Positions 5,217 to 42,963 of a stretch of 47,228 nucleotides of DNA are shown here, piece by piece. The position numbers and the translations under genes are program-made. The stretch is from Acidobacteriaceae bacterium (lineage in GTDB: Bacteria; Acidobacteriota; Terriglobia; Terriglobales; Acidobacteriaceae): NCBI GenBank assembly GCA_003139095.1, contig PLHW01000059.1, positions 1-47,228 on the forward strand. The letters run 5' to 3'. The first letter of the stretch is position 1; every line of letters begins with the position of its first letter. Below the pieces are notes generated by a model that saw nothing but the letters and a program-made list of their open reading frames with translations, searched no databases and was not told the origin of the DNA.

Positions 5217-5244
5217 ACCTCAAAGCTCCAAGCTCGTAGCTCCT
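5217..5244. repeat. Heptad array overlapping the porin stop codon
   Basis: Plus-strand units AGCTCCA (5224-5230), AGCTCGT (5231-5237) and AGCTCCT (5238-5244), with a decayed unit to 5217. The last unit overlaps the porin TAG (5245-5243), so in the coding direction the array begins at the stop codon. Confidence 0.7.
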
Positions 5245-6889
5245 AAAACAATACTCCCACACTCAAGTTCAAATGCCCCGCTCCGCTCGCTCCCGTCGTC
5301 AGCGCATTCGTCTCGATCCGTCTGTACTCCGCCGCAAACAGCAAATCCGACCGCGGCCGGTAAATCACGTTCGCAAATCCCGCGCGATTCCGCGTCAGCG
5401 CCGGATTGCCGTACGACTGCGGATACTGAAAGTATTCCAGATCGCTCGCATAAGGATTATCCATCCCGAATGCCCAGTTCAACTCCCACTTCGCGGCCGG
5501 ACGATACTTCAACTGCGCCCACCCGCCAATCGTGTTCAGCCCAATCACCTCGGTCGCGCGATTCGTCGGGTCGCCGCCAAACAGCGCACTCTGTCCCAGC
5601 CCTCCGTACAATCCTCCCAATCCTTTGCCCCGATAAAATTTCCCGCTCACCGCAAACCTCCCGCCCAGCGGCAGTTCCCAGTCGCTCATCGCCGCCCACG
5701 CATCCACGTTGCGCCCAAACCAGTAATTCTGCCGCTCATAAAACCCTCCCGCCCCCACCCGCAGCGGCTGTCCGAAAAAATTGTGCGTCCACGCCACCCG
5801 CGTCCCGTACCCCGGCTGCCGCGACTCCTCCCCCGGCCCCGGCTGTCGGTAATACGATGAGTACGGCACTTCCCCACTCACCGGATCGATAATTCCTCCC
5901 TCGATCAGCACATTCGACGACTCGCCGAGCGCAACCCTGTGCTCCACTCGTACCTGCGGCACCCAACTCCACAAATTCCCGGCGTACGACAGCGCCGGCT
6001 CGGCCAGCGTCGCAAATGACGTCGGCGAATTCGGCGAAAAGAAAATCCCATCCTGTCCCGCCACCACCGACGTGTTCTCCCAATCCATCCGCATTGTCGC
6101 CGTTCGCAGCCGCATCAGTCCCGCATTCACTCCGTTCGGCGCCGCCTCAAACCCGCCGCCCAGATCCAACTCCAGATCCGCTCTCGTCTTCGCTCCGCCC
6201 ACCCGCGGCCCAAAAACTTCAAACCCCAGTTGCGACTGCCGCAACGTCCCTCCAAAGCTCCCCGTCGCATAGCCCGCGGTCGTCGGATACGAGATCGCCG
6301 GCAAATCGATGTTATCCACCACTCCCTGATTGCTGAACAAATTCATCAGCACGATTCCGGAAATCCGCATCCGGTACTTCGATCCGCTCTCCACCTTCGT
6401 CTGATACTGATCGTCCACCTTCCCCGCCAACAGCTCATACTCCTCATCCAAACCAGCCGTCCGCCCAGCCTTCTTCTGTTCTTCCTGCCCGGCTACCGCC
6501 GCATTCCGATCTTGCGCGTCCTCCTTCGGCGACACATTCATCGCCGCCGCTGCATCTTTGCCGACTGTGCGCACTACCGCCTCCACCATCCCAGGCCTTG
6601 CGCCACCACCACCCCGCAACTCCTCCACCTCCCGCCGCAACTCCCGCCGCTCCGTCCGCTCCCGTTCCGCGTCCGCCCGCAGCTCCGCCACCGCCGCCCG
6701 CAGCTCGCGCACCTCATCCCTTAATTCGCGCACTGCCGCGCTCGCCTCGACCGTTGCATCGCCCGGCGAAGAACTCTCCGCCCGTTGCGCGCCCGTCTGC
6801 GCCATCGCCCCGCAGGAAACAAAAATCGCCAGCATCAACACTCCCAACCCCCGCTGGCCCAGCCACACGTATCTTTGCTTCCTGCTCAT
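5243..6889 (-). CDS. Outer-membrane porin with coiled-coil N-terminus (DcaP-like)
   Basis: A 548-residue protein. A signal peptide (MSRKQRYVWLGQRGLGVLML and on to AMAQ) is followed by a long coiled coil of ELR-rich heptads (residues about 45-90: VRELRDEVRELRAAVAELRA), as in DcaP-like porins. The remainder is a beta-barrel: alternating aromatic strands such as RMRISGIVLMNLFSN, RADLELDLGGGFE and ATMRMDWENTSVVAGQDGIF, ending in the outer-membrane signature LSVGVLF. ATG 6889 has GGAGG six bases upstream. The sensor kinase gene ends 57 bp upstream, suggesting one operon. Substrate is not deducible; DcaP relatives carry small anionic solutes and peptidoglycan-anchored trimers. Confidence 0.85.
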   Translation of the reverse strand: MSRKQRYVWLGQRGLGVLMLAIFVSCGAMAQTGAQRAESSSPGDATVEASAAVRELRDEVRELRAAVAELRADAERERTERRELRREVEELRGGGGARPGMVEAVVRTVGKDAAAAMNVSPKEDAQDRNAAVAGQEEQKKAGRTAGLDEEYELLAGKVDDQYQTKVESGSKYRMRISGIVLMNLFSNQGVVDNIDLPAISYPTTAGYATGSFGGTLRQSQLGFEVFGPRVGGAKTRADLELDLGGGFEAAPNGVNAGLMRLRTATMRMDWENTSVVAGQDGIFFSPNSPTSFATLAEPALSYAGNLWSWVPQVRVEHRVALGESSNVLIEGGIIDPVSGEVPYSSYYRQPGPGEESRQPGYGTRVAWTHNFFGQPLRVGAGGFYERQNYWFGRNVDAWAAMSDWELPLGGRFAVSGKFYRGKGLGGLYGGLGQSALFGGDPTNRATEVIGLNTIGGWAQLKYRPAAKWELNWAFGMDNPYASDLEYFQYPQSYGNPALTRNRAGFANVIYRPRSDLLFAAEYRRIETNALTTGASGAGHLNLSVGVLF

Positions 6890-6946
6890 CGTACCCTCCC
6901 ACACTGCCCAAGAATCGCGTTTCGCTCGCTAGGATTTCGAACAGAA

Positions 6947-8719
6947 TTAAGTCGCTTGCCTCTCATGCCGCGCCGGCGCATCCACCGGCGCCGGGCTCAA
7001 CGGCATCCGAATCCGAAACGTCGTCCCCGTCGCCGACGTCTGCTCCACCGCCACGTCCCCGCCATGATCCTGCACAATCTTCTGCACCACCGTCAGTCCC
7101 ATCCCCGTCCCATTTTCCTTGCCATGACTCACGAACGGATCGAACAGCTTCTCCCGCACGGCGTCCGCGATCCCCGGCCCGTTGTCCTCAATCCGCACTT
7201 CCAACTTTTCTCCCACCCGCCGCAGCCCCACTTCAATTCTCCCCGAGTCCGCCGGCACCGCCTCGCATGCATTCAGCACCAGGTTCTGCAGCGCCCGCTC
7301 CAGCTTCTTGAAGTCGAACCATCCCTCCGTCAATCCCTCGCTGGTAACCCGAATTCCTATCCGCTGAAATTCCGGATGCGCCTTCACCGACTGCACGGCC
7401 CGCTCCACCGCCGATCTCGCGTCTCCATACGACGGCCGCAGCGATTCCCGCGTCCGCGAAAATTCCAGCAGCGACTCGATCAAGTCCGTCATCTGGTTCA
7501 CCGCGATCCGTATCTCCGCATACAGATCCTCGCGCTGCGCCGGCGTCAGCCCGCTCTCGCACAAAAACTCCGCGTTCGCCACCACCGCCGCCAGCGAGTG
7601 ACGCAAGTCGTGCGAAATCGAGCTCGCCATCCGCCCAATCGTCGCCAGCCGCTCCGCATCCAGCAACTCGCGCTGCGTCTTTTGCAAATTCGTTCGCATG
7701 CGGTCGAACGCTCCCGTCACCTCCGCCACCTCGTCTCCGCCCCGCGCCTCCAGCGGATACGAATAATCTCCCTGCTCCAGCGCCCGCACGCCCGCCACTA
7801 AATTTTCCAGCGGCCGCGTGAATGTCAGCGAAATCACAAACACCAGCAGGCTCCCCGCTCCCAGCGCGGTTAGCCCCAGCGCCAGCAGCAGCTCATTCAG
7901 ATTCCGCAAAAACGCCGTCGCTTGGTCTAACGATTTCAGCACCCACAAATTCGGCCCCGTCCCGCCCGACGCCGGCAGCCCCACCGACGTCGCCAGAAAA
8001 CGTTCCTCGCCCAGCCGTATCTCGTCCGGCTCCCGCATCCCGCCCGCATCGCTCCGCGGCGTCGTCTTCAGCAACTCCGCTTCCTGCGCCGGTTTCAGCG
8101 TGCTCCTAACAATCGCGCCGCCATACTGAAATGCCACTTCGCTCGCCGAAATCCTGCTCAACTCCCGCGCAAACCGGTCGTCGATCTCATATCCCAGCAC
8201 CAGATATCCCAAAACCTTGTGCTCGCTCTTCGGTCCAAAATAAATGTCCTGTAAAAATACCTCGAATAAATGTCCTTCCACATACCACCAGTGCCGCGTC
8301 TCCTCCTGCGTCACCACCGATGGAAAAAATTCCTGCCCCTCCCGCGCGCTGATCTCCGGCGACGCCGCCTGCAATGCCATCACCCGCCCCGAACCGTCCG
8401 CCAGCAGCAGCAAGTCGCTCCCCGCCAAATGCCACAAATCCCGCGACGCGTCCTGAATCGTCGCCGCATCGCGCGTCGTCATCATCGCCCGCACATTCGG
8501 CAAGTCCGCCAGCAGCGCCGCCGAGCGCTCCAGCATCTCTTCTCGTTGTCGTTGGAAATTGTGAAACGCGGAAACGGAATTTTCGAGGTCCCGCTCGATC
8601 CCCACCCGCACCTGTTGCTGTACCGTGTGCTGCACGACCCAAAGCGTGGCGAACGTCAGCGTAGCCGACACCGCCACCATCGAAAGCAAAAACTTAGTCC
8701 GAAGCCGTATCCCATTCAT
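6947..8719 (-). CDS. Membrane sensor histidine kinase (HAMP)
   Basis: A 590-residue kinase: TM1 about residues 8-29, a periplasmic sensor of about 240 residues (single or double Cache-like, with HWWYVEGHLFEVFLQDIYFG), TM2 about 276-299, HAMP (300-352), and HisKA with phosphorylatable His370 in SSISHDLRHSLAAVV. The HATPase contains an N box NLVLNACEA (479-487), G1 DNGPGI (512-517) and G2 GTGMGL (537-542). It is the partner of the response regulator encoded 115 bp upstream; the gap holds an octad array. Downstream are the porin and cupredoxin, the likely targets by position. The ligand is unknown. Confidence 0.95.
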   Translation of the reverse strand: MNGIRLRTKFLLSMVAVSATLTFATLWVVQHTVQQQVRVGIERDLENSVSAFHNFQRQREEMLERSAALLADLPNVRAMMTTRDAATIQDASRDLWHLAGSDLLLLADGSGRVMALQAASPEISAREGQEFFPSVVTQEETRHWWYVEGHLFEVFLQDIYFGPKSEHKVLGYLVLGYEIDDRFARELSRISASEVAFQYGGAIVRSTLKPAQEAELLKTTPRSDAGGMREPDEIRLGEERFLATSVGLPASGGTGPNLWVLKSLDQATAFLRNLNELLLALGLTALGAGSLLVFVISLTFTRPLENLVAGVRALEQGDYSYPLEARGGDEVAEVTGAFDRMRTNLQKTQRELLDAERLATIGRMASSISHDLRHSLAAVVANAEFLCESGLTPAQREDLYAEIRIAVNQMTDLIESLLEFSRTRESLRPSYGDARSAVERAVQSVKAHPEFQRIGIRVTSEGLTEGWFDFKKLERALQNLVLNACEAVPADSGRIEVGLRRVGEKLEVRIEDNGPGIADAVREKLFDPFVSHGKENGTGMGLTVVQKIVQDHGGDVAVEQTSATGTTFRIRMPLSPAPVDAPARHERQAT

Positions 8720-8755
8720 GAGAGAAATGCAAGGTTCGAGCTTTCCAGGTTTTCA

Positions 8756-8831
8756 GGGTTTCAAAGTTTCAAGGTGGGCAACCTTTACCTGACACTTTGA
8801 AACCTTGAAACCCTGCAACCTTGAAACCTTG
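8756..8831. repeat. Octad array with inverted arms between regulator and kinase
   Basis: Units of eight bases: TTGAAACC (8797-8804), TTGAAACC, CTGCAACC, TTGAAACC, TTG (to 8831). The segment AGGGTTTCAAAGTTTCAAGG near 8756-8775 is the inverted form, so the two arms could pair over about 21 bp with two mismatches. The array begins three bases after the response-regulator stop codon, in the coding direction. The same AACCTTGA word recurs at 17419-17458. Confidence 0.8.
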
Positions 8832-8834
8832 CCC

Positions 8835-9566
8835 CTAGGGAACAAATTTATACCCCGCGCTGTGCACCGTCCGAAAATGCAGCGGATTCGCCGGATCCGC
8901 CTCCAGCTTCTGCCGCAGCCGCAATATGTGATTGTCCACCGTCCGCGTGCTCGGATAATTCCTGTACCCCCACACCTGGTTCAGCAACTCCTCGCGCGTT
9001 AGCACCCGCTCCGCATTCTGAATCATGAACTTCAGTACCTTAAATTCCTGCGACGTCATCGGCACCAACTCTCCGTCCCGCCGCAATTCCATGCGCGTAA
9101 AGTCCACTTTCACACCGCCAAAGCTATACGTCTCCGCCATCGGAGCCTGCGTCGCCCGGCGCCGCATGGCCGTCCGCACCCGCGCCAGCAGCTCTCGCGG
9201 ACTGAACGGCTTCGTCACGTAATCGTGTGCGCCCAACTCCAGCAGCAGCACTTTATCCATCACTTCCGTCCGCGCACTCAAAATAATAATCGGCAACGAC
9301 GGCGCCGCCTGGCTGATCTCCCGGCAAATATCCTGCCCCGGCGTCCCCGGCAAACTCAGGTCCAGCACCAGCACCGAAGGCGCCGCCGCCCGAAACCGCG
9401 CCAGCCCCTCCGTCCCATTCCCCGCAATCTCGACCAGAAATCCCTCCGCCTCGAACAACCTTCGCAGCGCCTTCTGCACCGCCAGGTCGTCCTCAATCAC
9501 CAATATTCTTTCGCCCACCGCCGGAGCCAGTTCCATCGTCGCCCCTTGTCCCGAACTTTTCACCAT
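8835..9566 (-). CDS. OmpR/PhoB-family response regulator
   Basis: A 243-residue regulator. The receiver domain shows the acidic pair in VIEDD, phospho-acceptor Asp69 in LVLDLSLPG, and Lys119 in YVTKPF. The winged-helix DNA-binding domain has the usual ending (TSQEFKVLKFMIQNAERVLT, then RTVDNHILRLRQKLEADPAN and the terminal HSAGYKFVP). It is first in the row regulator, kinase, porin, cupredoxin. Start choice: ATG 9566 follows a purine-rich GGGAG with good spacing; GTG 9578 and ATG 9536 are alternatives. Predicted to bind the operon promoter and others, in response to the kinase at 6947. Confidence 0.95.
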   Translation of the reverse strand: MVKSSGQGATMELAPAVGERILVIEDDLAVQKALRRLFEAEGFLVEIAGNGTEGLARFRAAAPSVLVLDLSLPGTPGQDICREISQAAPSLPIIILSARTEVMDKVLLLELGAHDYVTKPFSPRELLARVRTAMRRRATQAPMAETYSFGGVKVDFTRMELRRDGELVPMTSQEFKVLKFMIQNAERVLTREELLNQVWGYRNYPSTRTVDNHILRLRQKLEADPANPLHFRTVHSAGYKFVP

Positions 9567-10415: not shown

Positions 10416-10471
10416 ATTAACCATCCCATAAAATCCAACAACATCAACAGTGGGCCGCGATACGGGTAACA

Positions 10472-17418: not shown

Positions 17419-17458
17419 AACCTTGAAACTCTGAAACCTTCAAACTTCAAAACTCTAC
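17419..17458. repeat. Octad array overlapping the RRM stop codon
   Basis: Five 8-bp units: AACCTTGA, AACTCTGA, AACCTTCA, AACTTCAA, AACTCTAC. The last one contains the RRM stop codon on the minus strand (17457-17455). The unit matches that at 8797-8831. Confidence 0.8.
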
Positions 17459-17811
17459 CAGCGCGGCTCCCGCGGTTGCCGCGGATGTCCTCGATAATCG
17501 TCCCGCCCGCGTCCACCGCCGCCGCCCCCGCCGCCAAAGCGCTGCCCATCGCCTTTCGGCCGGTCCGTCTTCGGTTTCGCTTCGTTGATCGTCAGCGGGC
17601 GTCCGCCCAGATCCGTCCCGTTCAACGCCGCGATCGCCTTATCCGCATCGCCCGCGTTCGTCATCTCCACAAACGCGAAACCGCGCGACCTTCCCGTATC
17701 GCGGTCCGTCACCAGTGTCACTTTGTCCACGGGTCCGTGCTTCTCGAAAACATCTCGCAGTTCGGCTTCGGTTGTGCTGTGCGGCAAGTTGCCAACGTAA
17801 AGGTTCTTCAT
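17455..17811 (-). CDS. RRM-domain RNA-binding protein
   Basis: A 118-residue single-RRM protein: RNP2 is LYVGNL (residues 4-9) and RNP1 is RGFAFVEM (about 44-51), with the beta-alpha-beta spacing intact and an aromatic pair in place. A glycine/arginine-rich tail (RFGGGGGGGGRGRDDYRGHP) follows, as in cyanobacterial and other bacterial cold-inducible RNA-binding proteins. It should bind single-stranded RNA in the cytoplasm. ATG 17811 has AGGAG six bases upstream, and its ATGA overlaps the stop of the pseudo-receiver gene, so translation is coupled. A longer upstream frame only reads through that gene. Confidence 0.92.
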   Translation of the reverse strand: MKNLYVGNLPHSTTEAELRDVFEKHGPVDKVTLVTDRDTGRSRGFAFVEMTNAGDADKAIAALNGTDLGGRPLTINEAKPKTDRPKGDGQRFGGGGGGGGRGRDDYRGHPRQPREPRW

Positions 17812-18410
17812 TGCATCTCCTGTATTGGTAAATCCTGCAAATTCGTCAATTCGCGCCTGTCCTCGACGCGCTGCCCTTCCGCATCTCTCACCGGCGCTGG
17901 CCTCTCCCGGATCGCTTGCGTCCGCGCGCTGCATGCCGACCGCACCGCCGAGATTCGCCGGGATGCTTCCAGCAACCCCCAGCGCTGCGTCAGCCCTTTC
18001 AAATTCAATGACAGCGCCTCCTTCACGTCTCCGCCCGTGCCCTGGTCCTCCGCGTTCATCACCGGCGCCAGTTCTTCTTCATTCGGCAAGTGCGCCAGAA
18101 ATTCCGGCCCACCCACCAGAAACGCCATTCGCTGCGGCGGCGTCGCCCCGCGAATGTCGTCACAAAACTTGTCCCGATGCCCCAGCCCTTTTTCCATATT
18201 GACCAGCACCAGGTCGTACAAATCCGCTCTCCACCACGCGCGCGCCTCTCCAATGTCGGCCGCACAATCCACTTCCATGCCGAGCTTCCGCATCACCTCG
18301 GCGCGCAAATCGCGCTTATGGGTCGATCGATCCACCAGCAGCACCCGTTTCTTTTTATCCGGAACCGGAATCATCACGGGCAGCGGCAACACCACCATTG
18401 GCATGTTCAT
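17808..18410 (-). CDS. Pseudo-receiver (CheY-like, Asp to Asn) protein
   Basis: A 200-residue protein. Residues about 20-110 follow the receiver fold: KKKRVLLVDRSTHKRDLRAE, then DLYDLVLVNMEKG, where the phospho-acceptor position is Asn71 rather than Asp. The acidic pocket is reduced to Asp27, and no conserved Lys is evident after AFLVGGPE. It probably cannot be phosphorylated in the normal way. The C-terminal about 90 residues (helical, SLNLKGLTQRWGLLEASRRI) are unrecognised. ATG 18410 overlaps the stop of the 52-aa gene by ATGA, and its own stop overlaps the RRM start. It may be a protein-protein adaptor for the RRM protein; that is inference. Confidence 0.75.
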   Translation of the reverse strand: MNMPMVVLPLPVMIPVPDKKKRVLLVDRSTHKRDLRAEVMRKLGMEVDCAADIGEARAWWRADLYDLVLVNMEKGLGHRDKFCDDIRGATPPQRMAFLVGGPEFLAHLPNEEELAPVMNAEDQGTGGDVKEALSLNLKGLTQRWGLLEASRRISAVRSACSARTQAIRERPAPVRDAEGQRVEDRRELTNLQDLPIQEMQ

Positions 18411-22992: not shown

Positions 22993-24006
22993 ATGTACAC
23001 TCCCGATCCCAACCGTTATAACTCCATGCCCTATCGCCGCTCCGGTCGCAGCGGCATCCAACTTCCCGCCGTCTCCCTCGGACTCTGGCACAACTTCGGC
23101 GGCATCGATAACTTCGAAAATTCCCGCGCCATGCTCCGCCGCGCCTTCGATCTCGGCATCACCCACTTCGATCTCGCCAATAACTACGGCCCTCCCTACG
23201 GATCGGCGGAAGAAACCTTCGGCCAGATCTTCAAAAAAGATTTCCTTCCCTATCGCGACGAGCTCATCGTCTCCACCAAGGCAGGCTGGGACATGTGGCC
23301 CGGCCCCTACGGAAATCTCGGCTCGCGCAAATATCTGCTCGCCAGCCTCGATCAGAGCCTTAAGCGCACGGGCCTTGCCTATGTCGACATCTTCTATCAT
23401 CATCGCCCCGACCCCGACACGCCCATGGAGGAATCTCTCGGCGCGCTCGACACCGCCGTGCGCTCCGGCCGCGCCCTCTATGCCGGCATTTCCGCCTACA
23501 ACGCCCAGCAGACCGCCGAGGCGCTAAACATTTTGCGCGCTCTCGGTACCCCCTGCCTCATTCATCAGCCCAAGTATTCGATGTTCGTGCGCGATCCCGA
23601 ACACGGCCTGCTCGACGTCCTCGAGAAAGATGGCGTCGGCGCCATCGTCTTCAGCCCCCTCGCTCAGGGACTCCTCTCCGATCGCTACCTCAAAGGCATT
23701 CCCGCCGATTCGCGCGCCGCCCGCGATACCTTCCTGAAGAAAAATGACATTACCGAAGACAAGCTAGCCAGGATTCGCGCTCTCCAGTCAATCGCAGTGC
23801 AGCGCGGCCAAACCCTCGCCGAGATGGCCGTCGCCTGGGTTCTCCGCGATCCCCGCGTCACCAGCGCCCTCGTCGGCGCCAGTAAAGTTTCCCAGCTCGA
23901 CGACAACGTAGCCGCGCTCCGCAATCTAAAATTCACCCCCGAAGAGTTGCGCGCAATCGACGCCGCCCTAACCCCCACCCCAATGACTAAATGGTTAAAT
24001 GATTAA
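22993..24006 (+). CDS. Aldo/keto reductase (YghZ / glyceraldehyde-3-P reductase-like)
   Basis: A 337-residue NADPH-dependent oxidoreductase. Catalytic tetrad: Asp60 and Tyr65 (HFDLANNYGPPYG), Lys96 (VSTKAGWDMWPGPYG), His137 (DIFYHHRPD). The segments GAIVFSPLAQGLLSDRYL and SALVGASKVSQLDDNV are the cofactor region. The motif set and PYGNLGSRKYLLASLDQSLK are close to E. coli YghZ, which reduces L-glyceraldehyde 3-phosphate and methylglyoxal. The last six residues (TKWLND) are encoded by an octad array (23981-24020), so the native C-terminus has probably been altered by the repeat. Confidence 0.93.
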   Translation: MYTPDPNRYNSMPYRRSGRSGIQLPAVSLGLWHNFGGIDNFENSRAMLRRAFDLGITHFDLANNYGPPYGSAEETFGQIFKKDFLPYRDELIVSTKAGWDMWPGPYGNLGSRKYLLASLDQSLKRTGLAYVDIFYHHRPDPDTPMEESLGALDTAVRSGRALYAGISAYNAQQTAEALNILRALGTPCLIHQPKYSMFVRDPEHGLLDVLEKDGVGAIVFSPLAQGLLSDRYLKGIPADSRAARDTFLKKNDITEDKLARIRALQSIAVQRGQTLAEMAVAWVLRDPRVTSALVGASKVSQLDDNVAALRNLKFTPEELRAIDAALTPTPMTKWLND

Positions 24007-24020
24007 ATGACTAAATACCC
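23981..24020. repeat. Octad array spanning the aldo/keto reductase stop codon
   Basis: Units CAATGACT, AAATGGTT, AAATGATT, AAATGACT and AAATACCC. The TAA stop at 24004-24006 lies within the array, and only 19 bp separate this gene from the convergent NfeD gene. Confidence 0.8.
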
Positions 24021-24025: not shown

Positions 24026-25375
24026 TTATGCCAAGGCCGCGTGGGGCGCGGTAACTGGGTCTACTCTTAGGGTCAGGCCTTCTACTTGCCGCACGACTAC
24101 TCTTTCGCCGGCTTGGATATTCAGGGTGGAAACTGCGTCCCAGAGTTCGCCGTGGATGAAGACTTTGCCGCTGGGCGACAAAGCGGTTTCGGCGATGCCG
24201 ATTTCGCCGACTAACCCTTGCTGCCCGGTTACTACTTTGTTGCGGCGGGCGCGGACGGCGATGCTCATCAGGAACGCGGTAATTAGGCCTAGGGGAATGG
24301 CGACGGCTAGCGCGGTGGTAAGGCGGACGCGCATTTCCGGGATGGGTCCATCGACTAAGAGTAAACCGCCAATTACCAGGAGCGAGATGCCTCCAATGGT
24401 CAGGACGCCGTGGGTGGCGAATTTGGCTTCGAGCGCGAAGAGCGCGAAGGACCCGACGATGAGGACGAGCGCGGCGAAGCGGACGGGAAGAAGATTGAGC
24501 GCGAAGGCGGCGAGCAGGATGAAGACGACGCCAACCGTGCCGGGAATGACTGCGCCGGGATGATTGAATTCGGCGTAGAGCGCAAGCGCGCCGATGGCGA
24601 GCAGGATGAAGGCGACATTCGGATCCATGATGTAGGTCAGGATGCGCTGCTTGAGGGTCATGCGATAGTCGCGGATCGGCTGGCTGGTGAGATCGAGCGT
24701 AACCGTTGTGCCGTTGAAGCGCTTGAAGGATTTGCCGCTGAGCTGGCGGAAGAGATCCTGCTCGGTGGGAGCGATGTATTCGATGAGTTTTTTGTCGAGG
24801 GCTTCCTGATCGGTGAAGGATTTGGATTCGCGCACGGCGCTCTCGGCGAGTTCGACATTGCGGCCGCGTTTGGCGACGACCGAGCGCATGAGGGCGGCGG
24901 CATCGTTTTCCATTTTCATTTTCATCACGTCATCCATTTTGCCGCCGCCAATCGTCACGGGATGCGCGGCGCCGGTGTTGGTGCCGGGGGCCATGGCGGC
25001 GATGTCGGCGGACTCGAGGATGAAGAAGCCGGCGGAGGCGGCGCGGCTGCCGCTGGGCGTGACGTAGATGATGACGGGCACGGGAGAAGCGACAATTTTT
25101 TCGATGATGTCGCGAGTCGAGTCGACGAGGCCGCCGGGAGTGTTGATTTCGATGAGCACGGCCTGCGCGCGATGGGCGGCCGCGTCATCGAGGGCGCGGC
25201 CGATGTATTCGGCGGTGACGGGCTGGATGGCATCGTTGACGACGATTCTTAGAACGTCGGCGGAGGCGGAAACGGCGAGAACAAGAATTGCACAGAGCAC
25301 GGCCTGAAGCCAGAAAACCGGGCGCGTGCGCCTGAGGACTGAGAGCTGAGAGCTAAGAGCTAAGAGCTGTTTCAT
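24026..25375 (-). CDS. nfeD: NfeD-family membrane serine protease
   Basis: A 449-residue long-form NfeD protein: signal/anchor, ClpP-like protease domain with Ser114 (GSRAASAGFF) and probable Lys154 (MKMKMENDAA), four to five membrane helices (about 235-365), and a C-terminal OB-fold NfeD domain (GLVGEIGIAETALSPSGKVF, HGELWDAVS, IQAGERVVVRQVEGLTLRVD). Homologues cleave stomatin partners; a slipin gene is present at 35226 but not adjacent. ATG 25375 overlaps the TPR stop codon by ATGA. The first codons (KQLLALSSQLSVLRR) are encoded by a heptad array, so a functional start further in, near residue 27, cannot be excluded. Confidence 0.92.
   Translation of the reverse strand: MKQLLALSSQLSVLRRTRPVFWLQAVLCAILVLAVSASADVLRIVVNDAIQPVTAEYIGRALDDAAAHRAQAVLIEINTPGGLVDSTRDIIEKIVASPVPVIIYVTPSGSRAASAGFFILESADIAAMAPGTNTGAAHPVTIGGGKMDDVMKMKMENDAAALMRSVVAKRGRNVELAESAVRESKSFTDQEALDKKLIEYIAPTEQDLFRQLSGKSFKRFNGTTVTLDLTSQPIRDYRMTLKQRILTYIMDPNVAFILLAIGALALYAEFNHPGAVIPGTVGVVFILLAAFALNLLPVRFAALVLIVGSFALFALEAKFATHGVLTIGGISLLVIGGLLLVDGPIPEMRVRLTTALAVAIPLGLITAFLMSIAVRARRNKVVTGQQGLVGEIGIAETALSPSGKVFIHGELWDAVSTLNIQAGERVVVRQVEGLTLRVDPVTAPHAALA
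25334..25368. repeat. Heptad array inside the NfeD N-terminal codons
   Basis: Plus-strand units GAGGACT, GAGAGCT, GAGAGCT, AAGAGCT, AAGAGCT. It lies just after the TPR-gene stop codon in the coding direction and is read as codons 3-14 of nfeD. Confidence 0.8.
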
Positions 25376-30277: not shown

Positions 30278-30374
30278 AATGCCTCAATGCCTCAATGCCC
30301 CAATGCCTCAATGCCCCAATGCCTCAATGCCCCAAATGACTCAATGCCCCAATGACTCAGTGACTCAATAATTC
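30278..30374. repeat. Octad array (AATGCCTC), 12 units
   Basis: Twelve nearly contiguous 8-bp units alternate AATGCCTC and AATGCCCC, then decay to AATGACTC, AGTGACTC and AATAATTC. It is the longest array in the window, with one extra A at 30334. It lies 55 bp after the GT-C gene stop. Confidence 0.88.
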
Positions 30375-30460
30375 ATTTCCCGCTGCCAGCAAAACCACCT
30401 AGTCCCCTCCCCATGACCCCATTTCCCCCCAAACGTCGCGCTTATCAATGAAGGGCAAGT

Positions 30461-33890: not shown

Positions 33891-33909
33891 GGCCGATCCA
33901 GCATTCCCT

Positions 33910-34410: not shown

Positions 34411-34498
34411 GTTCTCGGTCCTCGGTTCCCAGTTCTCAGTCTTCAGTGTGCGTCGGGCGCTCCAGCTTCTACTGACAACTGAGAACCGACAACTGACA
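34411..34498. repeat. Inverted pair of heptad arrays
   Basis: Left arm, 34411-34452: GTTCTCG, GTCCTCG, GTTCCCA, GTTCTCA, GTCTTCA, GTGTGCG. Right arm, 34471-34498: ACTGACA, ACTGAGA, ACCGACA, ACTGACA. The arms are reverse complements in type (GTTCTCAGT against ACTGAGAAC) and could fold together. It ends 36 bp before the next gene. Confidence 0.8.
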
Positions 34499-34533
34499 AC
34501 GTTTTTCAGCAGTCCGAATTTGAAAGGAGCTTT

Positions 34534-35137: not shown

Positions 35138-35172
35138 AACTGAAAACTGAGAACCGGGAACTGAGAACTGGG
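35138..35172. repeat. Heptad array (AACTGAG)
   Basis: Units AACTGAA, AACTGAG, AACCGGG, AACTGAG, AACTGGG. The unit matches the right arm at 34471-34498, on the other side of the Cys-rich gene. Confidence 0.8.
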
Positions 35173-36017: not shown

Positions 36018-36110
36018 GTCGAGAGTAAGTTGTTAGTAAGTAAGAGCTACTGTAATTATGAGTGATGACAGTAATAATAGTTACGAGTAAGAGCCAAGGT
36101 AAGAGCTATG
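36016..36110. repeat. Degenerate GAGTAAG-type repeat at the slipin stop
   Basis: Words GAGTAAG, GTAAGTAAGAGC, GAGTAAGAGCC and GGTAAGAGC recur between 36016 and 36110 with poor periodicity. It starts at the slipin TGA. Weaker than the other arrays. Confidence 0.5.
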
Positions 36111-37239: not shown

Positions 37240-37263
37240 CTCCGTGCCTCCGTGACTCCGTGG
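37240..37263. repeat. Octad array (CTCCGTGN)
   Basis: CTCCGTGC, CTCCGTGA, CTCCGTGG in tandem, seven bases after the hybrid-kinase stop codon in the coding direction. The word recurs in the 19207-19299 duplication. Confidence 0.75.
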
Positions 37264-37270
37264 TGAAGAA

Positions 37271-40200
37271 CTACGCCCCCGCCCCCGCGCTCGCCGCCTT
37301 CTCCCCGCTCTGCGCCAGCAATCTCACCTGCCCAATCAAATCCCCCACGCCAAACGGCTTCGCCAGGATCGGCACATTCCGTTCCTGCAAAAATGTCCGC
37401 ACCGGCTCCTCCACCATGCTGGAGAACGTAAGCACCAGCCTCTTCTCCATGCCCGCCGCGTTCGCCGCGATCCATTCATACACTTCCTGCGCGCTCGCCT
37501 CGCCCGGCATCCGCCCGTTCATCACGACCGCGTCGAACCTCCCCGCCCGCAGCCGCTCTTTCGCCTCCTCCATCGTCGTCGACGCCGCCACCTCCGCGCC
37601 CGCCCCCGCCAGCACGTCCCGCTCAAACTCCAGCACCGCCTCTTCGTCTTCCACCAGCAGCACGCGCCCCATAATCATCGACTCCCGCCGCGCCGCTGCC
37701 GTCGTCTCCAACTCCGCCGGCTTCTCGCTCGCCGGCAATCGCACTTCAATCACAGCGCCCCCCTCCGGCCGGTTGCGCGCCACAATCTCTCCGCGATGCT
37801 CTTTCACAATCCCGTAGCAGATGCTCAGCCCCAGCCCCGTCCCTTTGCCCTGCGATTTCGTCGTATAAAACGGATCGAAAATCCGGCTCGGCTCCTTGAT
37901 CCCCGGCCCGTTGTCCTCAAACTCTACGCACACCTGCGCCTCTTTCCGCGTCACCCGCACCCGCAGAAACCCGCGCCCGCTGCCCTCTCCCACCGCATCC
38001 AGCGCATTATTAATAATGTTCAAAAACACCTGCTCCAACTGATGGCAATCGCCCACCACCGACGGCAAGTCGTTCGGGATCTCCCGCTCCAGCGCAATGT
38101 TGTTCACCTTCAGGTCGTACTCGCTCAGCGTCAGCGTCTCTTCCAGCACTTTCCGCAGATCCAATTCCTGTTTCTGCGGCTTGCGCTGCCGCGCGAACGA
38201 CAGCAAATTCTGCACGATCCGGTGCGTCCGCTGCGCCTGCTTGAACAGCTTGCCCACATAGTCTGCCGACCGCTCGTCCAGTCCCGCCCCCTCCAGCAAC
38301 TGCGCATATCCCAATATCGCCGTCAGCGGATTATTCAATTCATGCGCCACGCCCGAAATCAGCTGCCCGATCGCCGACATCTTTTCGCTTTGCAGCAATT
38401 GCTCCTGCGTCCGCCGCAAATCCTCGTACGCCCGCGACGTCTCTTCATACAGCAGCACCTTCTCCACCGTCATCGCCAGTTGCCGGCTGATCGCCACCAG
38501 CAGGTTCTCGTCGTTGCTCGAATACCGTCGGTCTTCATTGCTCGCCAGTCCCATCATGCCCAGCGGCTTGTCCTTGCTCCACAGCAATACCCAGATCCAG
38601 TACGGCAACCGGTCCGCGCAAATAAATTCCACCACCGCCGGCGGCAGATGCGGCAGAAATTCCTGCGTCACCACCTCGGCCCGCGACCGCATCACCAACT
38701 CGCCTAATCCCTCCGGAAATTCCGCCTCCGCAAACTTCATCCGCGCTTCGCTTCTTTGCCCCCACCCCGCCCGCCGCCGGAATATTCCATCCCCGGTGCC
38801 CGCCAGGTACACCGATCCCGTCTCCGCCCCAAACAGCGACACCACTTGCCGCAGCGTCAAATTCAAAATCTCGTCCAGATCGAACGATTGCGTCGCGATC
38901 ACCGCCATCGCATTCAGTGCGTTCAACTCGCGATTGCGCCGCCGCATCTCGTCTTCCGACCTCTTCTTCTCCGTGATGTCGAGCACAAATCCCTGATACC
39001 GCTCGATCCTCCCCGCCCCATCCCGCGTCGCAAAACAGCTCAGCGCCGCCATCAGCAGTGCCCCATCTTTGCGCCGCACCGTCATCTCAAAGTTGCGCGC
39101 GTAGTTGTGCGCCTCAATCTCGCTCCGGAACGCCTCCCGCTCCTCCGCCGTCGCTCCCAGCACGCCCGCCAGGTCCAGCGCCTTCAACTCGTCGCGGCTC
39201 CCATATCCCAGCATGGTTACAAACGCATCGTTGCAGTCCAGCAAGTCGCCTTCCAGCGTTGCCACAAACACGCCTTCCTGCGCCTGCTCGAACAGCATCC
39301 GGTATTTCTCTTCCGCCGCGTGCCGGTCCGTCGCATCCTGCACCACGTGGATCGTTCCCACCTGCTGTCCATGCTCCGCGTACGTCGACGTCGATACCAC
39401 CGACTGCCCGCCAAAACACGGGTCGATTCCTTCCGTCAGCCCCCCGCCTCGCTCGCAATACGGGCATCCGCTCCAGAATTCCTCCTTCGGCAGCACCGCC
39501 CCGCACGCGCTCCCCAGCACCTCCGCCGGCGACCTCCCCAACCGTTGCAGCAGCGCCTGGTTCGCTTTCAGGATCCGGTAATCCCCATCGTGCGCCAGAA
39601 TTAGATCCTGTATTGAATCGAACGTGTTCACCCATTGCAGTTGCGACCGCAGTACCTGCTCCAGCAGCTTCGCGTTCTCCGCTGAAATTCCCAGCTTCTG
39701 CGCCGCCGTCTCCAGAAATTCCAGCTCATCCCGCCCGTGCCGCCGCCGCCGCCCAAATCCCAGCGACAGCATCCCAATCGTCGATTCCTTCCCCACCACC
39801 GGCATCAGCACCACCTGCCGAATCCCGCGCCCCTTCAGCAGTTCCTGCGCCTCCGGCACTTCCGCCAGTCGCACCACCGCCGCACAGCCTCCTCCCACAA
39901 TCCGCGCCATCGTCGCGCCCATTTCCGTCTGCCCCATCCCCCGCAGCTCTTCTGGCGTCAATCCCACGCGCAGCGCCGGCTTCAGATTTCCTCCCTCCAT
40001 CCGGTGAAACCACGCCGCCTTCGCCTTCGTCGCCTGCGTCAACTGTCCCAGCGCCGCCTGCATAATCGTCGAGTGGCTCTGCCCGTGCGCAATCGTGCTC
40101 GACAAATCCGTCAGCACGCCCAGCCGGTGCGTGCGCACCCGCGAGTCATCCAGCGCCACCAGCAGCAGGCTCGAGCCAAATAAAATCTCCGCCAGCAAAT

Positions 40201-40771
40201 ACCCGTCGTTCGGAATTTGATTCGTGAATGGCGTCCACTTCCCGTGCAGCGTCACCAGTCCCGCCGCAAATAAAAATGGTCCCAGCCCCACTCGCCCCAG
40301 CCGCGCCAGCATCAACTCGATCGCCACCCCCGCCGCAATCACCCGGCACGCAATCTCCACGCCCGCATACGGAATCTCCGGATGATAGACCGGCGCAACC
40401 GCCGCGGCCATCAGCATTATCCATGCCATTCCCACCGGGATCGTCAGCATCGGCCGCGACTCCGCGCACATCAGCGCCGCCGCCGCAAACAGTCCCATCG
40501 CTAGCACTAAGTCCGCCTGCGTACATGCCGCCAGCGCCTTCGCCCCCGCATGCCCGGCGCTCGCCCGCACCAATGCCAGATACCCCGCGTACGCCGCCCA
40601 CCCCGCTCCCCACGCCACCAGGTAGCGCCGCCGGAATGATCGGAAGAAAACCAGGCTCACCGCCACCATCATTAGCGCCGCCGTCTCCCGCGCCGTCAGC
40701 CACACTGTCAACACGCCCACGGATTTCCCCACAACTCCCGCCGCACTCGTCAATAAACCCGGCAATGCCAC
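37271..40771 (-). CDS. Large hybrid histidine kinase with pseudo-receiver
   Basis: A 1166-residue kinase. The N-terminal part has about seven membrane helices (residues 20-205, MASE-like). Then come a GAF domain (215-375), PAS (375-480; with a CPYCERGG Cys pair), PAS/PAC (482-605), a second GAF (615-775), HisKA with His810 (SGVAHELNNPLTAILGYAQL), and HATPase (N box QVFLNIINNALDA; DNGPGI; GKGTGLGLSICYGIVKEHRG). The C-terminal receiver has Asn1085 where Asp is expected (VVMNGRMPG), so it cannot be phosphorylated normally. GTG 40771 follows GGAAGA. It is divergent from the HD-GYP regulator at 40888, a probable signalling pair. Confidence 0.93.
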   Translation of the reverse strand: MALPGLLTSAAGVVGKSVGVLTVWLTARETAALMMVAVSLVFFRSFRRRYLVAWGAGWAAYAGYLALVRASAGHAGAKALAACTQADLVLAMGLFAAAALMCAESRPMLTIPVGMAWIMLMAAAVAPVYHPEIPYAGVEIACRVIAAGVAIELMLARLGRVGLGPFLFAAGLVTLHGKWTPFTNQIPNDGYLLAEILFGSSLLLVALDDSRVRTHRLGVLTDLSSTIAHGQSHSTIMQAALGQLTQATKAKAAWFHRMEGGNLKPALRVGLTPEELRGMGQTEMGATMARIVGGGCAAVVRLAEVPEAQELLKGRGIRQVVLMPVVGKESTIGMLSLGFGRRRRHGRDELEFLETAAQKLGISAENAKLLEQVLRSQLQWVNTFDSIQDLILAHDGDYRILKANQALLQRLGRSPAEVLGSACGAVLPKEEFWSGCPYCERGGGLTEGIDPCFGGQSVVSTSTYAEHGQQVGTIHVVQDATDRHAAEEKYRMLFEQAQEGVFVATLEGDLLDCNDAFVTMLGYGSRDELKALDLAGVLGATAEEREAFRSEIEAHNYARNFEMTVRRKDGALLMAALSCFATRDGAGRIERYQGFVLDITEKKRSEDEMRRRNRELNALNAMAVIATQSFDLDEILNLTLRQVVSLFGAETGSVYLAGTGDGIFRRRAGWGQRSEARMKFAEAEFPEGLGELVMRSRAEVVTQEFLPHLPPAVVEFICADRLPYWIWVLLWSKDKPLGMMGLASNEDRRYSSNDENLLVAISRQLAMTVEKVLLYEETSRAYEDLRRTQEQLLQSEKMSAIGQLISGVAHELNNPLTAILGYAQLLEGAGLDERSADYVGKLFKQAQRTHRIVQNLLSFARQRKPQKQELDLRKVLEETLTLSEYDLKVNNIALEREIPNDLPSVVGDCHQLEQVFLNIINNALDAVGEGSGRGFLRVRVTRKEAQVCVEFEDNGPGIKEPSRIFDPFYTTKSQGKGTGLGLSICYGIVKEHRGEIVARNRPEGGAVIEVRLPASEKPAELETTAAARRESMIMGRVLLVEDEEAVLEFERDVLAGAGAEVAASTTMEEAKERLRAGRFDAVVMNGRMPGEASAQEVYEWIAANAAGMEKRLVLTFSSMVEEPVRTFLQERNVPILAKPFGVGDLIGQVRLLAQSGEKAASAGAGA

Positions 40772-40887
40772 GTCTTCCAGTATCCCGCGTGCATCCTTTC
40801 GCGTTACCTGATTTCCGCGTCCAACTGGTTACTTTCGGAATGTGGCAGCTCGCCCTAGAATGGCCGATATACTCACCCTGGAAAGTT
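40772..40887. promoter_or_regulatory. Divergent promoter region, hybrid kinase / HD-GYP
   Basis: A 116-bp gap with starts in opposite directions. GGAAAG precedes the HD-GYP ATG and GGAAGA the kinase GTG. No consensus promoter box stands out by eye. Confidence 0.45.
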
Positions 40888-41964
40888 ATGGCGAACGAAC
40901 GCATTCTCGTAGTCGACGACGAAGAAACTATCCGTGAAATCGTTTCCTCCATGCTCAAAGGCGCCAGCTTCCAGTCGCGCCAGGCCGGCAGCGGCATCGA
41001 AGCTCTCGCCATCCTCGAATCCGGCGATGTCTTCGATCTCGTTCTCTCCGACCTCATGATGGCCGAAATGGACGGCATCGCCCTCCTCGAGCATTCCAAG
41101 GAGCGCTTCCCCGACGTCCCCTTCGTCATGGTCACCGCCATGAACGACATTTCCGTCGCCCTCCAGGCCCTGCGCAACGGCGCTTACGATTACCTCCTCA
41201 AGCCCTTTGAGCGCGAGCAACTCCTCGCCACCGTCCGCCGCGCCCTCGAGCATCGCCGCCTCAAGCGCGAGAACGATGCCTATCGCACCAATCTCGAAGC
41301 CCTCGTCACCGCTCGCACCCAGCAGTGGAAAACTGCCCTCGCCAATCTCGAAAGGTCTTACGACATCACCCTCGAAGCCTTCGGCGACGCACTCGACCTC
41401 AAGGATGCCGAGACCGTCGGCCACTCCAAGCGCGTCACCGCCTTCACCATCGCCATCGCCCGCAAAATGGGGTTGTCCAAGGAGGAGATCAGCGTCATTG
41501 CCCGCGGCGCTTTCCTGCACGACATCGGCAAGATGGCCATTCCCGACGCCATTCTCCACAAACCCGGCAAGCTCAGCGAAGAGCAAACCGCCATCATGCG
41601 CGAGCACGCCTACGCCGGCTACAAAATTCTCAGCAAGATTCCCTTCCTCGCCGAGGCTGCCGAAATCGTCTACACCCACCAGGAGTGTTATGACGGATCC
41701 GGCTACCCGCGCGGCCTCAAGGGCGATGACATCCCCCTCGGCTCGCGCATTTTTTCCATCGCAGACACGCTCGACGCCATCACCTCCGACCGTCCCTATC
41801 GCCCCGCTCAGACCTTCACCGCCGCCCGCAAGGAAATCGAAGCCTGGGCCGGCCGCCAATTCGATCCCGCCATCGTAAGAGTTTTCCTCGAGATGCCCGA
41901 CAAAATCTGGGAAGACCTCCGCAAAGACATCAGCGGCCCCAACACCACCCCCACAACAGTCTGA
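40888..41964 (+). CDS. Response regulator with HD-GYP phosphodiesterase output
   Basis: A 358-residue protein: receiver (Asp55 in LVLSDLMMAEMDG, Lys105 in YLLKPF), a coiled linker (about 115-160) and an HD-GYP domain with His211-Asp212 (FLHDIGKMAIPD), THQECYDGSGYPRGLKGDDI and DAITSDRPYR. It should hydrolyse cyclic di-GMP to GMP when active, tying the divergent hybrid kinase to c-di-GMP turnover. The second HH of the usual HHExxDGxGYP reads HQE; the GYP itself is intact. ATG 40888 is chosen because it starts the receiver (MANERILVVDD). A hexad array follows eight bases after the stop. Confidence 0.95.
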   Translation: MANERILVVDDEETIREIVSSMLKGASFQSRQAGSGIEALAILESGDVFDLVLSDLMMAEMDGIALLEHSKERFPDVPFVMVTAMNDISVALQALRNGAYDYLLKPFEREQLLATVRRALEHRRLKRENDAYRTNLEALVTARTQQWKTALANLERSYDITLEAFGDALDLKDAETVGHSKRVTAFTIAIARKMGLSKEEISVIARGAFLHDIGKMAIPDAILHKPGKLSEEQTAIMREHAYAGYKILSKIPFLAEAAEIVYTHQECYDGSGYPRGLKGDDIPLGSRIFSIADTLDAITSDRPYRPAQTFTAARKEIEAWAGRQFDPAIVRVFLEMPDKIWEDLRKDISGPNTTPTTV

Positions 41965-41972
41965 CGATGTAA

Positions 41973-42008
41973 TTGCTCTTGCTCTTGCCCCTGCATTTGC
42001 TTTTGCCA
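41973..42008. repeat. Hexad array (TTGCTC) after the HD-GYP stop
   Basis: Units TTGCTC, TTGCTC, TTGCCC, CTGCAT, TTGCTT, TTGCCA. Same unit as at 9822-9863. Confidence 0.75.
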
Positions 42009-42069
42009 CCCCACGCAACTTTCCCCCACCCCACCGTTCTACCCATATAACATCCTTGCAGGAGGCCCC

Positions 42070-42783
42070 ATGAAACTCGCCCTTCTCCCTCTTCTCCTCA
42101 CCCTCACCTTCGCCGCAAACGCCCAGACCCCAACCGTCACCGCTCTCCCCAACACCGTCTACGTCGCCGCCGACGGCAAATTCGACACCGCCCCTGACAC
42201 CGCTCTCATCCAGTTCAACATTTCCGCCCAGGCCGCCACCGCCAAAGAGGCCTACGACCGCGCCTCCCAACAAGCCGAGGCCACGCGCCAGGTCCTCCGC
42301 GCCAACGGCATCGAGCCCAAAGCCGCCGAAATCGGCTTCTACTCCCTCAGCCCGCAATACGACTGGAAAAATCCCAAGCGCGCCGTCATCGGCTATCAGG
42401 TCTCGACCAGCGTCAGCCTCAAGCTCAAGGATTTCTCCAAGATCGCCCCCATCACCCAGCAACTCGCCGACGCCAGCGTCGGCCAAAGCCAATCTCTCAG
42501 TTACATCCTCGATAACCCCGAAGAGGCCAAGTCCAAAGCCGTCGCCGACGCCTTCCGCCACGCCCGCGCCTCCGCCCAAGCCCTCGCCGCCGCCGCCGGC
42601 CGCGTCCTCGGCGAACTCAACTACGCCTCCGTCGACGTCAACGAAAACATCCGCATCATGCCCTTAATGCACCGCGCCGCCATGCCCATGGCCGCGCAAG
42701 CTCTCCCTGCCCCCACCGAAGAATTCTCTCCCCAAAACGCCACCGTAACCGCCCACGTAAGCGCCATGTTCAATTTGAAATGA
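42070..42783 (+). CDS. SIMPL-domain (DUF541) periplasmic protein
   Basis: A 237-residue exported protein: signal peptide (MKLALLPLLLTLTFAANAQ), then the SIMPL pattern (DTALIQFNISAQAATAKEAY, then DRASQQAEATRQVLRANGIE, and GYQVSTSVSLKLKDFSKIAP). E. coli YggE is the best-known relative and lowers oxidative stress; BP26 of Brucella forms a periplasmic channel-like ring. GGAGG lies before ATG 42070. The last codons (AAT TTG AAA TGA) form part of a 20-bp repeat that continues downstream. Confidence 0.93.
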   Translation: MKLALLPLLLTLTFAANAQTPTVTALPNTVYVAADGKFDTAPDTALIQFNISAQAATAKEAYDRASQQAEATRQVLRANGIEPKAAEIGFYSLSPQYDWKNPKRAVIGYQVSTSVSLKLKDFSKIAPITQQLADASVGQSQSLSYILDNPEEAKSKAVADAFRHARASAQALAAAAGRVLGELNYASVDVNENIRIMPLMHRAAMPMAAQALPAPTEEFSPQNATVTAHVSAMFNLK

Positions 42784-42857
42784 GCAATTAGAACTTGAAA
42801 TTAGGTAACAAGAATTTGGAATGAGTATTCAGAATTTGAAATGAGTAACCAGAATCG
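42770..42857. repeat. 20-bp tandem repeat continuing the SIMPL gene end
   Basis: Units begin with AATTTGAAATGAGCAATTA (overlapping codons N-L-K-stop), then GAACTTGAAATTAGG, GAATTTGGAATGAGTATTCA and GAATTTGAAATGAGTAACCA, and a partial GAATCGGAAG. Confidence 0.75.
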
Positions 42858-42920
42858 GAAGATCTTCCAGCAGAAGTTAAAACAGGCACTAATCGGAAGG
42901 ATGAATTAGCATCTAAGCGA

Positions 42921-42963
42921 GACCTGAGACCTGAGACCTGAGACCTAAAGACCTGAGACCTGA
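42921..42963. repeat. Heptad array (GACCTGA)
   Basis: GACCTGA x3, GACCTAAA, GACCTGA x2. It lies ten bases after the stop of the 42973 gene in the coding direction. The unit recurs at the right edge of the window (47199-47228). Confidence 0.85.

What the first reader, a model, noticed from the sequence alone, without database searches (positions are those of the whole stretch)
5217..42963. Degenerate short tandem arrays sit directly at stop codons, at ten loci
Arrays of 6-8 bp (or 20 bp) units begin within about 10 bases of a stop codon after the porin (5244), response regulator (8831), RRM gene (17458), aldo/keto reductase (23981-24020), TPR gene (25368), slipin (36016), hybrid kinase (37263), HD-GYP (41973), SIMPL gene (42770) and the 42973 gene (42963). 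Unit sequence differs from locus to locus, yet position is the same. That suggests a process acting at gene ends, such as slippage, transcription-termination-linked mutagenesis or a selected role in termination or frame closure. The nearest concept I know is the heptanucleotide STRR family of cyanobacteria.
Basis: partly seen in the sequence, partly recalled or inferred. Interest (0 to 1): 0.82.

Follow-up and report, generated by a model that had tools for sequence, protein, structure and literature searches.

The report
Outward-facing short repeats at gene ends
This bacterial genome carries many short 7- and 8-letter repeat arrays that cluster just after genes and mostly point the same way, a loosely known but unexplained kind of DNA element that has been described only word by word in a few other bacteria.

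Summary
Nine of the ten arrays are found by at least one detector; slipin by neither, HD-GYP only weakly. In 1.86 of 5.53 Mb of the same genome, 79 of 168 intergenic 7/8-nt arrays with a stop at an edge lie within 15 nt of it (29.7 +/- 4.5 expected); starts show no excess (28 of 163; 26.5 +/- 4.1). The strong excess is specific to periods 7 and 8. Two missed features matter more. Arrays belong to recurring word families. And orientation is fixed: each family has one outward strand, read just after stops and, reverse-complemented, just before starts. Forty convergent pairs all have the same arm order; 129 solo arrays obey it 61 to 12 within 30 nt of a gene. One gene gap holds different families in different sister species. 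Paired arrays fold as hairpins, solo ones do not. Frame closure and termination-linked mutagenesis are not supported. Xanthomonas GGGAATC repeats, Geobacter metallireducens paired sites and Beggiatoa TAACTGA repeats show parts of the same design, so this is a new variant of a known, poorly understood kind. Best reading: dispersed gene-border elements, grown by slippage and oriented by sequence-specific recognition; the recogniser is unknown.

The parts
5219..5242 (-). heptamer array (GAGCTNC family on the sense strand) touching the stop of the 5243-6904 gene
   Evidence: not in the TRF list
8735..8772 (.). octamer array, left arm (CAAGGTTT type) of a convergent pair, 15 nt from the start of the kinase gene
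8790..8831 (.). octamer array, right arm (AAACCTTG type), 3 nt from the response-regulator stop; pairs with 8735-8772
17419..17453 (-). octamer array just after the stop of the RRM-domain gene (17455-17934); TRF score 42, not in my period-7/8 list
23982..24016 (.). octamer array (AATGACTA) containing the stop of the aldo/keto reductase gene; the stop of the convergent NfeD-family gene is 9 nt away
25332..25369 (-). heptamer array (CAGCTCT/TAGCTCT) just after the TPR gene stop and inside the first codons of the overlapping NfeD-family ORF
36018..36042 (+). weak, degenerate array after the slipin stop; found by neither detector
   Evidence: reading
37240..37262 (-). octamer array (CACGGAG-type on the sense strand) 8 nt after the hybrid kinase stop
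   Evidence: sequence
41973..42006 (+). weak hexamer array (TTGCTC) after the HD-GYP gene; outside the period 7/8 class
42772..42855 (+). 20-nt unit array straddling the SIMPL-domain gene stop; outside the period 7/8 class
42919..42969 (-). heptamer array (CAGGTCT on the sense strand) 3 nt after the stop of the 42973-43764 gene
34425..34500 (.). convergent heptamer pair (GTTCTCA ... ACTGACA) upstream of the 34534 gene; same class, not at a stop
35138..35170 (+). heptamer array (AACTGAG) upstream of the slipin gene; none seen at this place in the 8 orthologous loci that could be read
30278..30375 (+). octamer array (AATGCCTC, then AATGACTC), 55 nt beyond a stop

Best explanation
The arrays belong to a genome-wide class of dispersed gene-border elements built of 7- or 8-nt words. 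An element is either a solo arm or two arms of one word family facing each other (left arm, loop, right arm). Arms grow and shrink by slippage, and families spread to new gaps by an unknown copying route. Elements survive mainly in the free slack straight after a stop codon, because insertions in genes or in promoter and ribosome-binding regions are removed. The strand is fixed for each family: the left-arm word reads away from the gene at both gene ends. I infer that the words are recognised in one orientation, by a DNA- or RNA-binding factor, and that they mark or insulate gene borders; the paired form also makes an RNA hairpin that could protect or end transcripts in both directions. Shown: periods, stop enrichment, polarity, pairing, dispersal, family replacement at one site, folding of paired forms. 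Inferred: recognition factor, border function, copying route, removal by selection.
For: Only periods 7 and 8 are in strong excess, and in intergenic DNA. Stop-side enrichment 79 of 168 against 29.7 +/- 4.5, no start-side excess; it holds for solo arrays (56 of 109 against 20.0 +/- 3.5) and for arrays in pairs (23 of 59 against 9.7 +/- 2.8). Density per kb of gap: tandem 0.82, convergent 0.59, divergent 0.30. In the first sample 41 of 137 arrays have an inverted partner at 85% identity within 150 nt, against 14 direct copies and 6 and 0 for two nulls. Arm order is invariant: 40 of 40 paired elements agree with units from other elements only; octamer family 10 left-right, 0 right-left of 23 clusters; a second family in sister species 21 to 0 of 33 clusters. 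129 of 193 arrays are solo; within 30 nt they obey the order 40 to 9 after stops (16 unassigned) and 21 to 3 before starts (5 unassigned). One motif is in 23 of 24 same-genus genomes, control near zero. At the response-regulator/kinase gap six loci in five genomes carry another family whose arms are 93% and 92% identical while third codon positions are 63% and the loop 53%. Paired forms fold: median z -3.7, 35 of 40 below -2.
Against: No binding factor or mobilising enzyme was identified or searched for. Solo arrays at stops do not fold (65 arrays, median z 0.07, 8 below -2; 60 array-free stops: median -0.51, 17 below -2), so a hairpin role cannot explain most copies. More than 30 nt from a gene, solo arrays near stops do not obey the order (3 to 5; near starts 10 to 2). 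An arm is not more like its own partner than like other partners of its family (4 of 19), and the conserved arms show one two-sided change in 32 pairs, so precise pairing is not maintained. Neighbouring gaps share families more than chance (15 of 54 against 9%), which may mean local copying rather than function. Conservation of arms could be homogenisation between copies instead of selection. Across phyla the mechanical count at stops is only 18 to 10.
Confidence: 0.5

Rival explanations
1. RNA hairpins selected as bidirectional terminators or as REP-like 3'-end protectors; the arrays are simply the stem halves.
For: Paired forms fold strongly (35 of 40 with z below -2); T-rich 12-mers beyond paired arms 12 of 54 against 5.3% background; lowest density between divergent genes.
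Against: 129 of 193 arrays are solo and those at stops do not fold; A-rich tails are also seen (5 of 54); a hairpin is about equally stable in either arm order, so it does not explain the fixed order (inference); one convergent gap has its arms about 430 bp apart (L338).
Confidence: 0.2
2. Local replication slippage, or mutagenesis tied to transcription termination, makes each array where it stands.
For: Very pure heptamer stretches exist; at the TPR/NfeD junction the unit drifts between species (CAGCTCT, CAGTTCT, CAGGTGT).
Against: The same words recur at unrelated loci, species and phyla; only periods 7 and 8 are in strong excess; orientation follows the side of the gap, not transcription.
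Confidence: 0.1
3. Rho-utilisation sites: the left-arm strand supplies TC dinucleotides every 7-8 nt on RNA leaving a gene in either direction.
For: TC exceeds GA on the outward strand at both stops and starts; would explain outward polarity at both gene ends.
Against: GT, AG and (at stops) TT asymmetries are larger than TC; the TAATTTG unit has no TC; cyanobacteria, which lack Rho (PMC13289151, abstract start and passages), lean outward too (within 100 nt, stops 14 to 5, starts 16 to 0).
Confidence: 0.07
4. Templated 3'-end extension at breaks in intergenic DNA, telomere-like, adds the words to both ends before joining; resection stops at the gene edge because cells that lose more die.
For: Would give the outward order, the same family on both sides (23 of 40 same-gap array pairs against 9% for random pairs), arms no closer to each other than to others, and edge placement.
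Against: No such bacterial enzyme is known to me (recall); loops between arms are often long and unexplained; not tested directly.
Confidence: 0.06
5. Artefact of gene calling or of choosing arrays near stops.
For: Genes are my own calls; start positions are uncertain, and the right-arm strand of most families holds stop codons that limit ORF extension, which can inflate start-side polarity.
Against: Arm order in pairs needs no gene calls (40 of 40); after stops the same artefact would favour the opposite orientation; arrays not overlapping genes still show the stop excess.
Confidence: 0.04

Closest known systems
(GGGANTN)n heptamer repeats of Xanthomonas and GGGGA(C/T)T of Nostoc (PMC4692102; abstract, sections 10, 13, 15 and passages read)
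   Same: Heptamer arrays with fixed and free positions; mostly intergenic; within 50 bp, G-rich strand on the sense strand after stops and on the antisense strand upstream of ORFs; 70 and 75 convergent pairs in two Xanthomonas genomes; few between divergent ORFs; [quoted passage not shown]
   Different: One G-rich word per group, discussed there as G-quadruplexes; here tens of mostly non-G4 words of 7 and 8 nt obey the same rule.
Paired multicopy sites of Geobacter metallireducens, classes 1-3 (PMC2700814; passages read)
   Same: Tandem octamers (GTTGCTYN, TCTCCGTS[Y]) and heptamers (MTYCTGA) in pairs on opposite strands at variable distance; TCTCCGTS matches the window's 37240 unit and MTYCTGA my CAGAAGT family; the proBA gap holds a different element in the sister species.
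   Different: 24, 21 and 8 pairs in three classes; no rule for stops or orientation in the passages read; proposed there as IHF/HU or global-regulator sites, as a hypothesis.
TAACTGA direct repeats of Beggiatoaceae, Cyanobacteria and Bacteroidetes (PMC4679880; abstract, sections 7 and 10 read)
   Same: Heptamer of the ANAACTG family; in one genome 147 of 170 sets face a start codon, the orientation my rule predicts for starts.
   Different: One word, near starts rather than stops, one inverted pair only; in a sample of 24 Microcystis sets the orientation was mixed.
STRR heptanucleotides of cyanobacteria (recalled; Calothrix heptanucleotides mentioned in PMC4692102)
   Same: Dispersed heptamer arrays, several words per genome.
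   Different: Orientation and stop proximity not known to me for STRR.
REP/BIME palindromes (recalled)
   Same: Dispersed inverted repeats near gene 3' ends.
   Different: No tandem 7/8-nt words; most copies here are solo arms without a stem.

Membership tests
Convergent heptamer pairs of the Xanthomonas GGGANTN type | period-7 (or 8) tandem array with fixed and free unit positions | tested here: met
Convergent heptamer pairs of the Xanthomonas GGGANTN type | strand bias: one strand after stops, the other before starts | tested here: met
   61 to 12 for solo arrays within 30 nt, 21 more unassigned
Convergent heptamer pairs of the Xanthomonas GGGANTN type | convergent inverted pairs | tested here: met
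   40 elements, one order only;
Convergent heptamer pairs of the Xanthomonas GGGANTN type | G-rich unit able to form G-quadruplexes | tested here: not met
   of the nine unit profiles made only the ATCGGG words (7 arrays) carry a GGG run; other units were not profiled
G. metallireducens paired sites (classes 1-3) | tandem 7/8-mers paired on opposite strands at variable distance | tested here: met
   but 129 of 193 arrays are unpaired
G. metallireducens paired sites (classes 1-3) | binding by IHF/HU-type protein | not testable with these tools
   hypothesis of that paper
Cyanobacterial STRR | dispersed intergenic heptanucleotide arrays | tested here: met
Cyanobacterial STRR | same unit words as Calothrix STRR | not tested
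   words recalled only
REP/BIME | compact palindrome in every copy | tested here: not met
   129 of 193 arrays are solo; solo arrays at stops do not fold
Intrinsic terminator | hairpin followed by a U-tract | tested here: inconclusive
   paired forms fold; T-rich tail in 12 of 54
Phase-variable SSR | pure short repeat in a promoter or reading frame of surface genes | not tested
   function classes of neighbours not surveyed

The most novel reading that the evidence does not exclude
A single conserved process, shared by this genome and by cyanobacterial, Bacteroidota and gamma-proteobacterial genomes, writes outward-facing 7/8-nt words at gene borders. The words, their free positions and their strand are properties of that process (a templated end-extension or a border-recognising factor) and not of the local gene, so the arrays are a bacterial gene-border mark.
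Probability: 0.1. Interest if true: 0.92.

Novelty: new variant of a known kind. Interest (0 to 1): 0.64.

Why it matters
Reports on GGGAATC, TAACTGA and the Geobacter paired sites each discuss their own words in terms of one chemistry (G-quadruplex, translation regulator, IHF/HU). A genome in which tens of unrelated words obey one placement and strand rule suggests that the rule does not rest on any one word. It makes an old question, what heptamer repeats do in bacteria, testable with simple deletions and transcript-end maps.

Tried and rejected
Foldback or terminal-repeat copies of a master element: unit order inside arms is not clearly conserved in this genome (permutation P from the outer end 0.12, 0.44, 0.33, 0.61, 0.03, 0.79 for six families; from the inner end the octamer gives 0.04) and loops look unrelated by eye. 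The AGATTGC-bearing heptamer family in sister species looks more ordered but was not tested formally. Inverted duplication of one arm: own partner better than the family mean in 4 of 19. Target-site duplications: looked for by eye, none evident. mRNA 5'-3' pairing across one gene: same-family flanks in 15 of 54 array pairs against 9%, but same-gap pairs are higher (23 of 40), so gap pairing or local copying explains it better. GT-richness alone as the rule: among unpaired-flag arrays within 30 nt of a stop 43 are GT-rich and 24 AC-rich. Stops across phyla: 18 outward, 10 opposite, not significant; 7 of the 10 overlap the ORF end, and without overlaps it is 16 to 3 (my count from the printed rows). 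Pairs outside this genus: by my reading of listed places, 12 plus-then-minus pairs under 200 bp in a genome titled Acidobacteriaceae (G065), with one minus-then-plus spacing between two neighbouring pairs; none in the listed places of a Fulvivirga (G062, part list), a planctomycete or a Microcystis genome (about the first 100 places each), so pairing is not general. Earlier solo figures (139 solo, 67 to 12, 70 folded) counted some partners of pairs as solo; one search corrects them to 129, 61 to 12 and 65. Literature: no paper stating the orientation rule for many words came up in searches; most subscription papers are not held.
Full report
WHAT IS THERE. The window is contig C59 of an unnamed 5.53 Mb, 75-contig genome; I did not identify the organism (Acidobacteriota is a guess from recall). 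Of the ten reported arrays four are found by both detectors, four by Tandem Repeats Finder only (one of them, HD-GYP, weak), one by my scan only, and slipin by neither.

GENOME-WIDE TEST. I sampled 1.07 Mb, later 1.86 Mb, called genes with a frame-posterior caller of my own, and detected arrays by period. In 190,577 intergenic bases periods 7 and 8 gave 141 and 51 arrays against 4.7 and 0.7 for a Markov null, and 7.6 and 1.5 scaled from coding DNA; period 6 gave 18 against 5.7, periods 9-12 one to three each. In the larger sample 193 of 243 arrays lie in gaps between genes. Of 168 in gaps with a stop edge, 79 are within 15 nt of it; placing each at random in its own gap gives 29.7 +/- 4.5. Without arrays overlapping a gene it is 64 of 151 against 25.9 +/- 4.2. 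For starts it is 28 of 163 against 26.5 +/- 4.1. Density per kb is 0.82 in tandem, 0.59 in convergent and 0.30 in divergent gaps. A first run with Tandem Repeats Finder, periods 5-25, score 45 or more, gave 54 of 141 against 23.0 +/- 3.6.

WORD FAMILIES. In the first sample 93 heptamer arrays use 39 canonical units and 44 octamer arrays 19. Pooled profiles show fixed and free positions: CAG[TCG]T[CG]T, AGAAGTN, GAGCT[TAG][CG], GTCGTTN, CAA[GA]GTTT. Within arrays, mismatches pile up in one column more than a simple null gives (share 0.47 against 0.36; 46 of 63 arrays). Unit order along an arm shows little or no signal.

ORIENTATION. Forty elements have two facing arms of one family; all 40 have the arm order predicted from units of other elements. 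In the first sample the excess of inverted partners over controls is clear (41 of 137 against 14 direct, 6 and 0). The octamer gives 10 left-right, 0 right-left, 8 right only and 5 left only in 23 clusters; the AGATTGC heptamer in 30 sister-species loci gives 21, 0, 6 and 6. 129 of 193 arrays are solo. Within 30 nt they follow the order 40 to 9 after stops (16 unassigned) and 21 to 3 before starts (5 unassigned); further away 10 to 2 near starts and 3 to 5 near stops (15 unassigned). So near genes the left-arm strand reads out of the gene at both ends. A hairpin is about equally stable in either order, so stability does not set it (inference); that needs a sequence-specific reader, a polar origin, or descent.

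FOLDING. 40 paired elements: median z -3.7, 35 below -2. 65 solo arrays at stops with 70 nt of flank: median 0.07, 8 below -2; sixty array-free stops: -0.51, 17 below -2. Hairpins exist, but most copies are not hairpins.

SISTER SPECIES. The octamer is in 20 of 61 genomes searched (own included), 0-45 hits each, reversed-pattern control 0. AGGTCAGATTGCAGARGT is in 23 of 24 same-genus genomes (own included), 8-138 hits where present, control 0-1 per strand. At the response-regulator/kinase gap, of 22 rows read by eye, the own genome has the octamer pair; six loci in five genomes (G004, G009, G011, G014 twice, G016) have an AGAGGTN pair; G021 has a GAGCTNC-like pair; one row is truncated; the rest have other sequence, in part REP-like hairpins, or short gaps. 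In those six loci the arms are 93% and 92% identical, third codon positions of the regulator 63%, loop 53%, downstream flank 72%; this means constraint or homogenisation. Paired cells 180 of 192, one column with a two-sided change, two one-sided. After the TPR stop, 10 of 18 rows including the own genome have a CAGNTNT array by eye, one is doubtful, seven have none. At the slipin gene none of 8 readable loci shows such arrays. At the HD-GYP stop one sister of 23 (L309) has a TTTCTKG array by eye.

OTHER PHYLA. With longest-ORF calls, 8 of 91 arrays lie in ORFs; arrays nearest a start within 30 nt are outward 27 to 1; nearest a stop 18 to 10, or 16 to 3 without overlaps. The start figure may be inflated because the right-arm strand carries stop codons that limit ORF extension. 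Planctomycetota do not follow it at stops (0 to 3 within 100 nt). A further small set gave 10 to 3 at stops and 5 to 1 at starts. Pairs are common in a genome titled Acidobacteriaceae but absent from the listed places of a planctomycete and a Microcystis.

WHAT IT IS NOT. Frame closure: 68 of 91 arrays near stops lack a stop codon in the sense unit. Terminators: T-rich tails 12 of 54, A-rich 5 of 54. Rho sites: cyanobacteria lack Rho (PMC13289151, abstract start and passages) yet lean outward.

KNOWN RELATIVES. Xanthomonas (GGGANTN)n shows the same strand rule, convergent pairs and closeness to stops (PMC4692102). Geobacter metallireducens has paired tandem 7/8-mers, including two words found here (PMC2700814, passages). 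Beggiatoa TAACTGA faces starts as the rule predicts (PMC4679880). The class is therefore known in pieces. What I add is one genome with tens of words under one rule, same-site family replacement, and the finding that solo arms obey the rule without folding.

MECHANISM. I favour dispersed border elements, spread in trans by an unknown route, tuned by slippage, kept where they do no harm, and read in one orientation by an unknown factor. Family similarity between gaps is raised within 3 kb (18 of 81 against 9%), which hints at short-range copying. The polar end-extension idea is bolder, fits several odd facts, and is untested.

Noticed in passing
L072, L074, L082 (slipin downstream) and L119, L129 (response-regulator/kinase gap): A dispersed two-hairpin element (GCCCCTAAAGGGGC ... 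GGCATCGCTGAAGCGATGCC, or its reverse complement) lies soon after stop codons in several sister species, a REP-like family separate from the arrays.
   Followed up: no
window 47200-47228; G000:C45:223476-223503 of 223529: Two contigs end in or next to heptamer arrays, so arrays may break the assembly and be under-counted.
   Followed up: no
window 25332-25369; L092, L094, L096-L099, L108-L110: The array after the TPR stop lies in the first codons of the overlapping NfeD-family ORF in the window, so a heptamer array may encode part of a signal peptide; nine sister loci have an array at the same junction.
   Followed up: partly
L092, L104, L109: A further repeat (GTGTGGGGACGGGCG...CCGAGCAAAGCTCGGCAG) is inserted near the 5' end of the NfeD-family gene in several sister species.
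   Followed up: no
G061 and G064 (cyanobacteria): The reversed control pattern GACTNTTGACTNTTGAC is itself abundant (255+222 and 277+237 hits), showing another heptamer family, TTGACTN.
   Followed up: no
L309 after the HD-GYP stop: A sister species has a (TTTCTKG) array 17 nt after the same stop at which the window has a weak TTGCTC array.
   Followed up: no
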